64,000 nt of DNA, taken from NCBI RefSeq assembly GCF_900231835.1, contig NZ_OCTN01000004.1, forward strand, positions 124,001-188,000. Reading direction: 5' to 3'. This DNA comes from Pontivivens marinum. Lineage in GTDB: Bacteria > Pseudomonadota > Alphaproteobacteria > Rhodobacterales > Rhodobacteraceae. A program made the translations under genes and the position numbers. This document shows, in pieces, positions 5,537 through 51,325 of the stretch; position 1 is the first letter of the stretch, and every line of letters starts with the position of its first letter. Below the pieces are notes generated by a model that saw only the letters and a program-made list of their open reading frames with translations, was not told the DNA's origin and did no database searches.

Positions 5537-6186
5537 ACGGGCCGCATGATCTGGGCGGGCGCATGGGCTTTGGCCCAGTCGCGCCTGAGGAAAACGAGCC
5601 GCTCTTTCACGCCGAATGGGAAAAACGGGCGCTGGGAATTGTGCTGTGCTGCGGCGCACTGGGCTATTGGACCATTGATGAAAGCCGCCATGCGCGTGAA
5701 ACCATCCCGCACACGGATTACCTGCGGTTTTCCTATTATCGCATCTGGCTGACCGCATTGATTGAGCTGCTACAGCGCCATGGTGAGTTGAGCGCGCAGG
5801 AGCTTGCCTCCGGCCACGCGCAGACCGCCGGAAATCGTGCATCGCGTCGCCTGTCGGTCGATGGCGTTGCAGGCGTTTTGGCCAAGGGCGGCCCGACATC
5901 GCGTCCGCTGGAAAATGCCCCGCTATATCCTGTGGGAACACGGGTGCGGGTGCTGAACCTGCAACCAACGGGCCATATCCGCCTTCCGGGCTACCTGCGC
6001 GGGCATATCGGTGTGGTTGAGGCGCATTGCGGCGGCCATGTTTTCCCCGACACCAATGCCGTGCATCAGGGTGAGCAGCCACAGCACCTCTATACCATCG
6101 CGTTCGATGGCGCGGATCTGTGGGGACAGGGTGAGCGCCTCAGCGTGCGTGCCGATTTGTGGGAGAGCTATGTTGAACCTGTCTGA
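5533..6186 (+). CDS. nthB: Nitrile hydratase beta subunit
   Basis: A 217-residue partner of the alpha subunit; the active enzyme is an alpha-beta heterodimer or a higher assembly. It begins [16 protein letters not shown], the conserved opening of the family, continues through a helical region ([24 protein letters not shown]) and ends with an SH3-like barrel containing the run-up [16 protein letters not shown]. The length is normal. The gene is translationally coupled at both ends: it overlaps the alpha stop by four bases and the activator gene by 17 bases. Confidence 0.93.
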
Positions 6187-6541: not shown

Positions 6542-7921
6542 TTATTTCCCGAGCGCCGCCATTACGCGCACCCAGGAGCGGACACCACCGGTGAAGCTTT
6601 TGACGTTATACTTTTCGTTCGGGGAATGGATTGCATCATCATCGCGAGCAAAGCCGATCAGCATTGAGTCCAGCCCAAGCACTTCCTTGAAATGCCCCGC
6701 AATAGGGATCGAGCCACCGCCGCCAGTGTAAACCGCCTCGTTTGGCCATTCGGTGGCCAGAGCCTTGCGCGCCTTTTCAAAGGCAGGATCGGATGTCGCC
6801 ATCACCGTTGCCTTGTCCGCGCCGTGTCCGATGAACTCAACCTCGCAATCATCGGGCAGCATGTGGCGCACCCGCGCACGGATCGCATCGCGGATGGCGT
6901 GGGGGTCCTGATCCCATACCAATCGGCAGGAAATTTTCGCCCGCGCCTCGGCTGGCAAAACGGTTTTGAAGCCGTCACCGGTATAGCCGCCTGTGATGCC
7001 GTTGAATTCGCAGGTCGGGCGGGCCCAGATCTGATGCAGGGCAGGGATGCCTTGCTCACCTGCGGGGGTGCTCAGGCCGACCTTGCCCAGAAAATCCTTG
7101 GGATCGAATCCGAGGCTCTCCCACTGCTGGGCCAAATTGCCGGGAACATCGTGCACGCCATTATAGAAACCGTCCAACGTGACTCGGCCCTGTTCATCAT
7201 GCAGCGAGGCGAGGATATGGCTGAGAATACGGATCGGGTTCGCCGCAGGGCCGCCATAGCCGCCCGAATGCAGATCGCGATTGGCGGCGCGGATCACGAT
7301 TTCCTCGGCCACCATGCCGCGCAACATTGTGCAGATGGACGGAGTGTTGCCATCCCACATACCAGTGTCGCAAATGAGTGCGATCTCGGTTTTCAGCTCC
7401 TCGGCGTTTTCCTGTAGGAACGGCACCAGCGAGGGTGAGTGGCTTTCCTCCTCGCCCTCAAACAGAATTGTGATACGCACGGGCAGGTCGCCGGTTGTTT
7501 CAACCCATGCACGGCAGGCCTCAACAAAGGTCATCAACTGCCCCTTATCGTCCGACGCACCGCGCGCACGAATCATGGGGCCGTCGGGACCTTCCTCAAT
7601 TTGCGGGTCAAACGGATCGGACTTCCACAACTCTAGCGGGTCGGCGGGCTGTACATCATAGTGGCCGTAGAACAACACATGCGGCGCATCTTTCGGCCCG
7701 CCATGGGCCACAACCATCGGTTTTCCCGGCGTATCCCGACGCGTGGCATCGAATCCCAGGCCGTTCAATTCGGCGACCAGCCAGTCCGCCGTTGCCACAC
7801 AATCGTCATGATATGTGGGATCGGTTGAGATAGAAGGCATGCGGAGCAACGCAAATAGACGCTGCAATGCTGTGTCTGTATTGGCGTCGGCTGCACTTAG
7901 TACGGATTCAAGATTACTCAT
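6542..7921 (-). CDS. M20-family dipeptidase (metallopeptidase)
   Basis: A 459-residue cytoplasmic zinc-dependent peptidase. Metal and catalytic signatures appear in order: YGHYDVQPADP, ASDDKGQ, EGEEE, CDTGMW, a dimerisation-domain stretch LHSGGYGG, and IHSPNEKY near the end. This matches the M20 dipeptidases that cleave small peptides such as Xaa-dipeptides or carnosine-like substrates. The start MSNLESVLS at 7921 is preferred; the frame is open for 48 further codons upstream, but these look non-coding and cysteine-rich. It converges on the nitrile hydratase operon and is divergent from the lipoprotein pair. Confidence 0.9.
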   Translation of the reverse strand: MSNLESVLSAADANTDTALQRLFALLRMPSISTDPTYHDDCVATADWLVAELNGLGFDATRRDTPGKPMVVAHGGPKDAPHVLFYGHYDVQPADPLELWKSDPFDPQIEEGPDGPMIRARGASDDKGQLMTFVEACRAWVETTGDLPVRITILFEGEEESHSPSLVPFLQENAEELKTEIALICDTGMWDGNTPSICTMLRGMVAEEIVIRAANRDLHSGGYGGPAANPIRILSHILASLHDEQGRVTLDGFYNGVHDVPGNLAQQWESLGFDPKDFLGKVGLSTPAGEQGIPALHQIWARPTCEFNGITGGYTGDGFKTVLPAEARAKISCRLVWDQDPHAIRDAIRARVRHMLPDDCEVEFIGHGADKATVMATSDPAFEKARKALATEWPNEAVYTGGGGSIPIAGHFKEVLGLDSMLIGFARDDDAIHSPNEKYNVKSFTGGVRSWVRVMAALGK

Positions 7922-47966: not shown

Positions 47967-49451
47967 TTAATATTCTTCGGGGCGTTCCTGCCAGCTTCGC
48001 GCAAGGTCGGAGAAGCGGGTATAGCGCCCCTCGAACGCCAGCGGGACGGAGCCAATAGGGCCGTGCCGCTGCTTGCCGATCACGACCTCAGCGATGCCGG
48101 AAACCTTCTCCATCTTTTCCTGCCAGCGGGCCGTTGCCTCCAGATCTGTCTCGGATGGCATCTCACGCTCGGTGTAATATTCCTCACGGTATACGAACAT
48201 AACGGCGTCAGCATCCTGCTCGATCGAGCCGGATTCCCGCAAATCGCTGAGCTGAGGGCGCTTATCCTCGCGGTTTTCCACCTGACGTGACAGCTGCGAT
48301 AGGGCGATAACCGGAATTTCCAGCTCCTTCGCGATGGCCTTTAGACCCTGCGTAATTTCCGAAACCTCGTTCACGCGGTTATCGGATTTGGAGTTCGTAC
48401 CCTTGAGCAACTGTAGGTAGTCGATCACCAGCAGGTCGAGGCCGTGCTGTCGCTTCAACCGCCGCGCACGCGCCGCCACGGTCGAGATCTTCAGTGCGGG
48501 CGTATCGTCAATATAAAGCGGAATTCGCTCCAGTGTTTTCGACGCCTCAATAAAGCGGCGGAATTCGTCGGCGTCCAAGCTACCGTCACGGATTTTGTGG
48601 CTGTCCACCTCCGCCTGTTCGGCCAGAATACGCGAGGCCAGCTGATCCGCGCTCATCTCCAGTGAAAAGAACCCGACCACGCCGCCATCCACCGTGCCCT
48701 CGGTCCCGTCAGTGCGCAGACCCTTTTTATAGGCATGCGCCACGTTGAATGCGAGGTTCGTGGCCAGCGCCGTCTTACCCATCGAGGGACGACCGGCGAG
48801 GATCAAAAGGTCGGATTTGTGCAACCCGCCCAGCTTACTGTCCAGATCGCGCAGACCGGTGGACACGCCTGCCAGCTTGCCCTCACGCTGATAGGCGGAG
48901 TTGGCGACATTCACCGCCGTGGTCAGTGAGCGCAGGAAAGACTGGAACCCGCCCTCAACCCGACCCTGTTCGGCCAGTTGGTACAGCTTGGCCTCGGCCT
49001 CAACAATCTGGGCCTTGGGTTCATTATCCACGGTGATTGATTTCGCGGTGCCTGCGATTTCCTCACCAATCTCGATCAAAGCGCGGCGGATCGCCAGATC
49101 ATAGATCATCTGAGCATAGTCACGCGCAGCAAAGATCGAGATAGCAGACCCTGCCAACCGCGCCAGATAGGCCGGTCCGCCCAGCTCCGCCAAGCCCGGA
49201 TCCTCGGCCAAAAATGCCTTGAGCGTTACGGGCGAGGCGAGGGCGTTTTTCTGGATACGCTGCGCCGCCACCTCATAAATCCGCCGGTGGACGGGGTCGA
49301 AGAAGTGCACAGGCTCAATAATCGCCGCGACCTTGTCGTAGATCTCGTTATTGACGAGCAACGCACCCAACAGCGCCTGCTCCGCCTCGATATTATGCGG
49401 CAAAGGGGTCTGATCCGCCTTATCCACCGCCTGATAACCGCCATCCGCCAT
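47967..49451 (-). CDS. dnaB: Replicative DNA helicase DnaB
   Basis: The ring helicase that unwinds DNA ahead of the replisome. The 494-residue protein has the N-terminal collar domain (PHNIEAEQALLGALLVNNE), Walker A LAGRPSMGKTALATN, and the later motifs IDYLQLLKGTNSKS and ALSQLSRQVENREDKRP. Length and order are normal and no intein is present. It is the first gene of a long minus-strand run; upstream lies the AT-rich GHKL gene in divergent orientation. Confidence 0.97.
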   Translation of the reverse strand: MADGGYQAVDKADQTPLPHNIEAEQALLGALLVNNEIYDKVAAIIEPVHFFDPVHRRIYEVAAQRIQKNALASPVTLKAFLAEDPGLAELGGPAYLARLAGSAISIFAARDYAQMIYDLAIRRALIEIGEEIAGTAKSITVDNEPKAQIVEAEAKLYQLAEQGRVEGGFQSFLRSLTTAVNVANSAYQREGKLAGVSTGLRDLDSKLGGLHKSDLLILAGRPSMGKTALATNLAFNVAHAYKKGLRTDGTEGTVDGGVVGFFSLEMSADQLASRILAEQAEVDSHKIRDGSLDADEFRRFIEASKTLERIPLYIDDTPALKISTVAARARRLKRQHGLDLLVIDYLQLLKGTNSKSDNRVNEVSEITQGLKAIAKELEIPVIALSQLSRQVENREDKRPQLSDLRESGSIEQDADAVMFVYREEYYTEREMPSETDLEATARWQEKMEKVSGIAEVVIGKQRHGPIGSVPLAFEGRYTRFSDLARSWQERPEEY

Positions 49452-49647
49452 ACTGCACCCACCTTACCAATTAGCCGACTATCGACCCCGACACACTAAC
49501 ACGCCCACGACAGGAAGGCAGAGATTGAGTTTAGGGGAGTCGCGTTGGGGACATTGTAGCGGATGCAATGTGGGAGCGGTAGCGGTCTTGCTTTTAGATC
49601 TGTAAATGTATTGGGTGTTAGAATATTAATCGTATTAGAGGTTTCCA

Positions 49648-50638
49648 GTGGAAGTAAACGTTCCTACTAAGATGAACGCAAAGTCGATATCAAGGCTATC
49701 GATGAATTTAAGCGCAAATAAGAGTGTCGATAATTTTAGCATAAATCTAGGTGTTAAGCAGCGTCGCTGGACGCCTCTTGCGATGATTTTCACTTCACTC
49801 ATTGCTTTGGAATTTGGGGCAGCGCACTCCACGCCCTGACTGGCAAATGAAGAATACCGAATGTCATGGATACCTAGGAAGTATGGGCTTTTTTAATTCA
49901 CTGGGTATGGATATTGGGCATGCTCACAGTCGAGCGGTTGAATCTGGAAACTTCATTCCCATAACTAAAATTAACAGGGTCGATTTCGAAGAGGAGGCAA
50001 GTGCATGGGGGCGTGCAGTTCCTGAACATGTAGAGGGCCGCGCCGACGCAATTGCACAGACTCTACTTCAAGAATTCGGCAGTAGTAACTTTATTACAGT
50101 TCAGTATGTAATTCGAGAAATTATCAGGAACGTTTTCGAACACAGTCAGTCGAGTGAGATGTGGTACTGCGCTCAAAATTGGCCTACGAAAAATCAAGTT
50201 AATGCAGTGATCTCCGATTTTGGAGTGGGGATAGCCGGAACTTTAAGGTCACGATCAGAATATTCTGAGTTAAGTGATACTGAGGCATTGGATAATGCTC
50301 TACTTAGCGGAGTTACGTCTGCTCCGATGAGGGATAATGGTGCTGATCGATACTTCAATACTGGGTATGGACTATATGCCGCTAAGCGTATTTGCGAAAT
50401 GTCAGGCGTATTGTGCGTTTTTTCTGGCTCGGCGGCAGTGCGCATTGCTAGAGGTTCTTACAAGAAGTTTGAATGCAACATTCCAGGTACTATTGTATCC
50501 ATCACATTGGAACCGAGCAAAATATCGAACTTGAGTGCATTCCTTGCCAGTATTGCAAGTGAGGGGCAGAGGTCCGCATCAATGACTGCGGGCGCCTATA
50601 CTGGAGAAGCATCCAGCGCATCCCGAAACGTAAAATAG
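49648..50638 (+). pseudogene. GHKL-type ATP-binding protein gene with a frameshift, in an AT-rich patch
   Basis: Two overlapping open frames appear to be one gene. The first starts at the GTG at 49648 (GAGG six bases upstream), encodes 63 residues and stops at 49839. The second, open from 49787, carries the GHKL fold: N-box REIIRNVFEHSQS, G1 box ISDFGVGI and G2 box NTGYGLYAAKRI. Removing one G from the GGGG run at 49816-49819 joins them into a protein of about 329 residues whose N-terminal part would resemble the STAS-like lead region of such ATPases (WTPLAMIFTSLIALEFG, then YLGSMGFF). The patch is clearly AT-richer than its neighbours, suggesting transfer. A sequencing error is possible. Confidence 0.65.
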
Positions 50639-50643
50639 AAAAA

Positions 50644-50669
50644 CCCCGCCCAGTTTTCGCTGGACGGGG
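50644..50669 (-). terminator. Terminator of the rpsF-rpsR-rplI operon
   Basis: CCCCG-C-CCAG (50644-50653) pairs with CTGG-A-CGGGG (50660-50669) around a six-base loop. Reading leftward, a run of five T residues follows, as expected for an intrinsic terminator of the ribosomal operon. It lies just after the stop of the convergent GHKL gene and could stop that transcript too. Confidence 0.8.
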
Positions 50670-50695
50670 CTGTAACTCAACCGTTTAGGACGGGA

Positions 50696-51325
50696 TCAGA
50701 CTTGTGGCTGATCGTCGTCTTCTGCGGGTGCGTCCTCGATTGGGGCATCTTCGTCGTCGAAGTCGTTTGCAGCGCCGCCAACATCGTCGAACAGCTCGGC
50801 GATGTCGAATTCAGCTTCGGCGTCTTCCTCGGCGCGGATGTCCGCGATGGATTTACCGGAAGCCTGAATTTCAGCTTCTTCTGCGGAACGAGCAACGTTG
50901 ATCGTGATCGTTGCGGACACTTCGGGGTGCAGAACCACCTCCATGTCGTGCAGGCCCAGTTCCTTGATCGGCTGGTCGAGAACGATCTGACGACGCTCCA
51001 CGGTGAAGCCGTTCTCGGTTGCCGCATCGGCTGCATCGCGCGTGGTGACGGAGCCGTACAGCCCGCCCGCGTCCGAAGCCGAACGGATGGTGACGAAGAT
51101 CTGGCCGTCGAGTTTCGCTGCGAGCGCCTCGGCTTCCTTTTTCGTCTCCAGGTTGGTTGCTTCCAGCTGTGCTTTCTGTGCTTCGAAACGTGCCTTGTTT
51201 GCATCGTTTGCGCGCAGTGCTTTGCCCTGAGGCAGCAAGAAGTTGCGAGCGAATCCGGCTTTCACCGAAACCACTTCGCCCATTTGGCCCAGCTTGGCCA
51301 CGCGCTCAAGAAGAATAACGTCCAT
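50696..51325 (-). CDS. rplI: 50S ribosomal protein L9
   Basis: A 209-residue L9. The N-terminal domain is typical ([36 protein letters not shown]), a long connecting helix follows, then the C-terminal domain. Beyond the usual 150 residues there is an acidic tail of roughly 50 residues (for example [17 protein letters not shown]), common in alphaproteobacteria. It is last in the operon rpsF-rpsR-rplI, ten bases after rpsR. Confidence 0.97.

What the first reader, a model, noticed from the sequence alone, without database searches (positions are those of the whole stretch)
49540..50640. Frameshifted GHKL ATPase in an AT-rich patch between dnaB and the ribosomal operon
The patch is visibly AT-richer than its flanks and sits between two housekeeping loci. 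It holds one gene whose two parts lie in different frames; deleting one G in the GGGG run at 49816-49819 would give a continuous protein of about 329 residues with N-, G1- and G2-boxes of the GHKL fold. It could be a decayed signalling or defence-associated ATPase, a phase-variable gene switched by the homopolymer, or an assembly error.
Basis: partly seen in the sequence, partly recalled or inferred. Interest (0 to 1): 0.68.

Follow-up and report, generated by a model that had tools for sequence, protein, structure and literature searches.

The report
Frameshifted STAS-GHKL kinase gene
A horizontally acquired, AT-rich gene for a sensor-type protein kinase, related in design to recently described regulators of bacterial anti-virus defences, sits broken by a one-base reading-frame shift between two housekeeping loci of a marine bacterium; intact relatives exist widely, so it is a clear but modest case of a recently disabled accessory gene.

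Summary
Two overlapping + strand frames (49648-49839 and 49787-50638) lie in an AT-rich patch (GC 0.45 against about 0.60) between dnaB and the rplI operon. Reading through the GGGG run gives 329 residues that align, without a gap at the joint, with a family of about 335-residue proteins. In 96 of 97 related loci from bacteria and viruses the family is one intact frame, so the window copy is broken, not two natural genes. The family is an N-terminal STAS-like domain (the frameshift falls inside it) plus a GHKL ATPase/kinase. AlphaFold is confident (pLDDT 90), and the best solved match is the anti-sigma serine kinase SpoIIAB. It equals PHROG 3364 (unknown function). Its design resembles CapK/VapK, STAS-GHKL kinases published in 2026 that control immune operons or a toxin, but no STAS partner was found beside it or, by a limited test, beside other members. 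The gene is sporadic, AT-rich, and found on plasmids, phages and beside some defence genes. All 16 invariant residues survive, so the lesion is recent, an assembly error, or tolerated. Phase variation and programmed frameshifting are not supported. Unexplained: all four broken copies in the genome samples break at profile positions about 55-62.

The parts
49637..49641 (+). AGAGG, candidate ribosome-binding site 6 nt before the GTG start
   Evidence: sequence; not tested experimentally
49648..49839 (+). ORF1: GTG start, first ~57 residues of the STAS-like domain (beta1-alpha1-beta2-alpha2), then out of frame to a TGA stop
   Evidence: aligns with family profile positions 2-51 and with the family's initiator Met
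49787..49839 (+). overlap of the two frames in which the frame must change; holds GGGG at 49816-49819; falls at profile positions about 52-60, between alpha2 and beta3 of the STAS-like domain
49802..50638 (+). ORF2: rest of the STAS-like domain and the complete GHKL ATPase/kinase domain with C-terminal tail
   Evidence: Pfam HATPase_c 5.6e-6, PHROG 3364 for all 64 members including this one, family profile 257.8 bits
50117..50143 (+). N-box (E I I R N V F E H)
   Evidence: invariant E, R, N, E, H of A4
50216..50230 (+). G1 box (D F G V G)
   Evidence: invariant D, G, G
50357..50377 (+). G2 box (N T G Y G L Y)
   Evidence: invariant N, G, G, L
50486..50491 (+). GT motif of the GHKL fold
   Evidence: invariant G, T
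50642..50671 (-). intrinsic terminator of the rplI operon, met head-on by the gene, whose stop codon lies 3 nt away

Best explanation
The patch is a single horizontally acquired accessory gene for a STAS-GHKL protein (PHROG 3364 family), disabled in this genome by a frameshift inside the N-terminal STAS-like domain. The intact protein most likely works as a small signal-gated serine/threonine kinase of the SpoIIAB/CapK/VapK kind. The STAS-like domain and the groove it forms with the GHKL domain would sense a stress or invasion signal, and the GHKL domain would phosphorylate a partner protein and so release a response. In the window copy the two halves are out of frame, so full-length protein is not made except by rare frameshifting. 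Shown: frameshift, family, active-site residues, mobility of the gene; predicted: fold. Inferred: kinase activity, signal, partner, link to defence.
For: 96 of 97 related loci (genome and viral collections) have one intact frame over the whole profile. ORF1 and ORF2 together cover profile positions 2-328 of 334, and the read-through aligns with 29 homologs without a gap at the joint. AlphaFold model of an intact member: pLDDT 90.3, order E-H-E-H-E-H (STAS-like) followed by a GHKL fold. Best PDB match is SpoIIAB, 1tid_C, probability 1.00, E 8e-3, TM 0.66 over the target. CapK and VapK have the same STAS-GHKL layout; CapK phosphorylates its STAS partner (PMC13373217). Horizontal origin: gene GC is lower than its flanks in 97 of 106 loci, median -7 points, p 9e-18. 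No match in three genomes of the same genus, and only 15 of 395 in the family. Members lie on plasmids and phages. Some neighbours are defence genes: DrmB, Mrr-type PDC-S02, methyltransferase, DEAD helicase, Swt1-like HEPN.
Against: There are no reads, so an assembly error is open. No neighbour partner gene has been found in the window or consistently in homologs. Pfam does not call the N-terminal domain STAS in any of 64 members; the STAS assignment rests on predicted topology and weak similarity. The two closest solved matches have modest E-values, and no sequence-level match to a solved structure is significant. Six Rhodobacteraceae loci sit in an operon with an AAA protein and DUF6638, which is not an obvious defence context.
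Confidence: 0.72

Rival explanations
1. The frameshift is a sequencing or assembly error and the gene is intact in the organism.
For: All 16 invariant residues are kept and the read-through is otherwise free of stops; the only lesion is a single-base frame change near a G run.
Against: The run is only GGGG, and flanking dnaB, alr and rplI are intact. The genome is 99.8% complete with 0.06% contamination. Other related genomes carry clearly broken copies too, so decay is common.
Confidence: 0.17
2. Programmed recoding: a ribosomal or transcriptional slip at the run makes some full-length kinase, with the short N-terminal product as the main one.
For: Four broken copies, with different lesions, break at the same profile positions 55-62 (window frameshift; L210 frameshift in an A7 run; L074 in-frame TAG; L195 IS insertion); uniform-placement odds 3e-5 for four of four (post hoc).
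Against: 96 of 97 other loci have a continuous frame. The four lesions would need different mechanisms, one being an IS insertion. No conserved slippery motif was found. The odds weaken to 1.5e-3 if lesions are confined to the first 100 positions.
Confidence: 0.05
3. Phase-variable gene switched by the homopolymer.
For: A G run lies at the frame change.
Against: Four G is far below the tract lengths known for slipped-strand phase variation (own knowledge); the window has 201 runs of 4 or more G; homologs are intact.
Confidence: 0.02
4. Split but functional: ORF2 is translated separately, for example by reinitiation at ATG 49847, 7 nt after the ORF1 stop, and gives a constitutive GHKL protein.
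For: The ORF2 active-site residues are fully kept; ATG 49847 follows TGA 49839 closely.
Against: The split cuts the STAS-like domain between alpha2 and beta3; ATG 49847 has no clear ribosome-binding site; no intact homolog starts there.
Confidence: 0.04

Closest known systems
PHROG 3364 (viral protein family, unknown function)
   Same: All 64 family members scanned, window ORF2 included, match it, best E 6.9e-34.
   Different: The window copy is frameshifted; the PHROG has no assigned function.
VapK of VapKSC (STAS-GHKL kinase; PMC13373217)
   Same: Order STAS then GHKL, no HTH; occurs near defence genes; proposed ssDNA site between the two domains.
   Different: VapK lies with vapS (STAS antitoxin) and vapC (PIN toxin). 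Neither is next to the window gene. The own genome has no DUF4325, and its STAS_2 matches lie on other contigs. Direct sequence comparison was not possible (VapK sequence not held).
CapK of CapK-CapS (HTH-STAS-GHKL kinase; PMC13373217)
   Same: STAS-GHKL core with SpoIIAB-like kinase fold.
   Different: No N-terminal HTH, no capS, no downstream immune operon; the gene runs head-on into the rplI terminator.
SpoIIAB/RsbW anti-sigma serine kinases
   Same: Best solved-structure match.
   Different: Extra N-terminal STAS-like domain and C-terminal extension; no partner STAS or sigma gene nearby.
PADLOC DrmA (PDLC02567)
   Same: 54 of 64 members match this model.
   Different: For the two members tabled the match covers only positions 76-265 of 1750; no helicase is present, so it is not DISARM.

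Membership tests
GHKL ATPase/kinase superfamily | N-box, G1 and G2 boxes and GT motif | tested here: met
   all 16 invariant residues kept in the window copy; Pfam HATPase_c above cut-off
PHROG 3364 | match of the profile over most of its length | tested here: met
   64 of 64 members including the window ORF2 match; coverage seen for member 1, profile 21-292 of 304
STAS-like N-terminal domain | beta-alpha-beta-alpha-beta-alpha topology | tested here: met
   AlphaFold model of an intact homolog; the window half aligns with it
STAS-like N-terminal domain | match to a Pfam STAS model | tested here: not met
   only HATPase models and a chance hit in 64 members; STAS_2 0.006 only in the cousin L079
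CapK | N-terminal HTH domain | tested here: not met
   ORF1 begins with the STAS-like beta1; family length about 335 aa
CapK | capS immediately downstream and an immune operon | tested here: not met
   next feature is the rplI terminator and opposite-strand rplI
VapK | vapS and vapC in the same operon | tested here: not met
   no neighbour gene in the window; no DUF4325 in the own genome; no STAS partner at the other members' loci with three STAS queries
VapK | sequence similarity to VapK and its conserved Phe in the ssDNA groove | not tested
   VapK sequence is not held; F at profile position about 55 is a lead only
DISARM DrmA | SF2 helicase core | tested here: not met
   PADLOC match confined to profile 76-251 of 1750
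Sensor histidine kinase | phospho-acceptor His in a DHp dimerisation domain | tested here: not met
   the domain before GHKL is STAS-like; no such Pfam match
Serine/threonine kinase activity | phosphotransfer to a partner | not testable with these tools
   needs biochemistry
Programmed frameshift gene | two-frame arrangement conserved in relatives | tested here: not met
   96 of 97 loci in one frame

The most novel reading that the evidence does not exclude
The PHROG 3364 STAS-GHKL proteins are a widespread, solo (partner-less) branch of the CapK/VapK kinases that gates nearby or distant immune functions, and the repeated breaks at one STAS loop in independent lineages reflect selection to silence or uncouple the sensor half rather than chance decay.
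Probability: 0.07. Interest if true: 0.6.

Novelty: new member of a known kind. Interest (0 to 1): 0.33.

Why it matters
The finding settles that this is one broken accessory gene rather than two genes. It also ties an uncharacterised viral and plasmid protein family (PHROG 3364) to the STAS-GHKL kinase design that was shown in 2026 to control bacterial immune operons. A family that seems to occur without the STAS partner that CapK and VapK have poses a direct question: what does it phosphorylate? The dnaB-rplI gap may also be a site where AT-rich accessory genes land and decay: the nearest species carries a different, deleted ATPase gene there.

Tried and rejected
DNA-level searches for a near copy found nothing in E. 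coli genomes or plasmids, so no recent donor and no selection test (dN/dS) were possible. The first genome-contig scan with the single sequence found nothing; the alignment found 150. The PADLOC DrmA hit was followed and rejected as DISARM membership. A conserved neighbour partner was sought by clustering and by phmmer with STAS and HEPN queries; none is general. Only the AAA and DUF6638 operon (6 loci) and a DEAD helicase downstream (3 loci) recur. Sequence search against solved structures gave only weak histidine-kinase hits. Flanking repeats that would mark a mobile element around the patch were not found. CapK and VapK sequences could not be fetched.

Full report
Observation. The window shows two overlapping + strand frames between dnaB (47967-49451, - strand) and rplI (50696-51325, - strand). 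ORF1 runs from GTG 49648 to TGA 49839. ORF2 is open from 49787 to TAG 50638. GC drops to 0.45 from about 0.60, and third-position GC is 0.41-0.48 against 0.63-0.72 in dnaB, rplI and alr.

Is it one gene? ORF2 matches Pfam HATPase_c above the curated cut-off. Homologs were collected from plasmids and phages, Rhodobacteraceae genomes, the GTDB contig set (150 matches, 80 kept) and IMG/VR (17). In 96 of these last 97 loci a single uninterrupted frame covers nearly the whole family profile; the exception, L180, is itself broken elsewhere. The window's ORF1 aligns with profile positions 2-51 in the right register, better than any of 2000 shuffles, though the best shuffle came close (10.9 against 10.6 bits). 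ORF2 covers 53-328, and the read-through covers 2-328 of 334. In a 30-sequence alignment the read-through shows no gap at the joint. The GTG start, with AGAGG six bases upstream, coincides with the family's initiator Met.

What the family is. The members are about 335 residues. AlphaFold gives an intact member a pLDDT of 90, with strand-helix-strand-helix-strand-helix at the N-terminus (STAS-like) and a GHKL fold after it. The best solved match is SpoIIAB, the serine kinase and anti-sigma factor, probability 1.00. No member matches a Pfam STAS model, so the STAS call rests on topology. All 64 members scanned match PHROG 3364, of unknown function. The frameshift falls at profile position about 56, between helix 2 and strand 3 of the STAS-like domain. 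The window copy is divergent (it matches 56% of well conserved columns, second lowest of 30), yet it keeps all 16 residues that are invariant across 61 members. The lesion is therefore recent, tolerated, or an assembly error.

Mobility and context. The family gene has lower GC than its flanks in 97 of 106 loci (median -7 points, p 9e-18). It is sporadic: 15 of 395 genomes of the bacterial family have a match, none of the three other genomes of the genus. It occurs on conjugative plasmids and phages. Neighbours vary. Some are defence genes: DrmB, an Mrr-type PDC-S02 endonuclease, a type II methyltransferase, a Swt1-like HEPN protein, a DEAD helicase. Six Rhodobacteraceae loci (two of them the same genome region) show an operon with an AAA ATPase and DUF6638. 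The PADLOC DrmA match seen in 54 of 64 members is, in the proteins tabled, to the first 265 of 1750 positions only, and does not make this DISARM.

The site. In the nearest species (G002) the same dnaB-rplI gap holds a different AT-rich gene (GC 0.40-0.42), a STAND-like/AAA_16 ATPase that survives as two pieces of 94 and 202 residues. A plasmid homolog is 419 residues long, so that copy has probably lost its middle. Both inserted genes end within a few bases of the rplI operon terminator. Other relatives have gaps of 0.4 to 7 kb with unrelated content.

How it most likely works. The 2026 study of CapK-CapS and VapK-VapS-VapC (PMC13373217) describes HTH-STAS-GHKL and STAS-GHKL kinases. CapK is activated by ssDNA and phosphorylates a serine in a STAS partner, which releases a repressed immune operon; VapK is thought to release a toxin in the same way. 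The present family has the same STAS-GHKL layout and a SpoIIAB-like catalytic domain, so a signal-gated kinase is the best-supported reading of the intact protein. It does not meet the definition of CapK (no HTH, no capS) or of VapKSC (no vapS or vapC). No STAS partner was found next to other members by a limited phmmer test, and the own genome has no DUF4325 and only distant STAS_2 genes. Kinase activity, signal and partner are inferred.

Unexplained. Among strict family members seen in the genome samples, four copies are broken, and all four break at profile positions about 55-62. These are the window (frameshift), G187/L074 (in-frame TAG), G123/L195 (IS insertion, with the C-terminal piece resuming at 227) and G612/L210 (frameshift in an A7 run). 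Uniform placement gives odds of 3e-5 for four of four, or 1.5e-3 if lesions are confined to the first 100 positions. This is post hoc, and L180 breaks elsewhere. The lesions differ in kind, so one recoding mechanism does not explain them.

Verdict. A real, frameshifted member of a known but uncharacterised STAS-GHKL family, ordinary as a decaying accessory gene and somewhat more interesting for its link to the CapK/VapK kinases.

Noticed in passing
L074 (G187), stop at + coordinates 6058-6060, repeats 294-1350 and 6799-7855: Family member with an in-frame TAG at the same STAS loop as the window frameshift, between two 99.9% identical 1057-bp direct repeats.
   Followed up: partly
L210/L199 (G612), N part 1489-1686 and C part 1548-2474 of L210: Alphaproteobacterial copy with a frameshift in an A7 run at the same profile position.
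   Followed up: partly
L195 1-500 and L193 1-500 (G123): Copy interrupted by an IS3-type element at profile position 59; the C-terminal piece resumes at 227, upstream of ribosomal protein genes.
   Followed up: partly
L051 6444-7377 (G002): In the nearest species the same dnaB-rplI gap holds a different AT-rich ATPase gene (AAA_16/STAND-like), reduced to two pieces and ending at the rplI terminator.
   Followed up: partly
L073, L128, L132, L134, L095, L111: Recurrent Rhodobacteraceae operon: AAA ATPase, STAS-GHKL, DUF6638, small membrane-type proteins, mostly with overlapping start and stop codons.
   Followed up: no
L090, L144, L163: STAS-GHKL gene directly followed by an 860-880 aa DEAD helicase; possibly the split form of the N-terminal GHKL part of PADLOC DrmA model PDLC02567.
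   Followed up: no
L002 7011-8855 and L087: STAS-GHKL gene preceded at 6 bp by a 272-aa protein with a weak HEPN/RES N-terminal match on a small conjugative plasmid.
   Followed up: no
L078 4830-5998, L079 4849-6014: Cousin two-gene cassette: a STAS-GHKL protein of 292-294 aa with a DUF4325 STAS-like partner of 95-98 aa.
   Followed up: no
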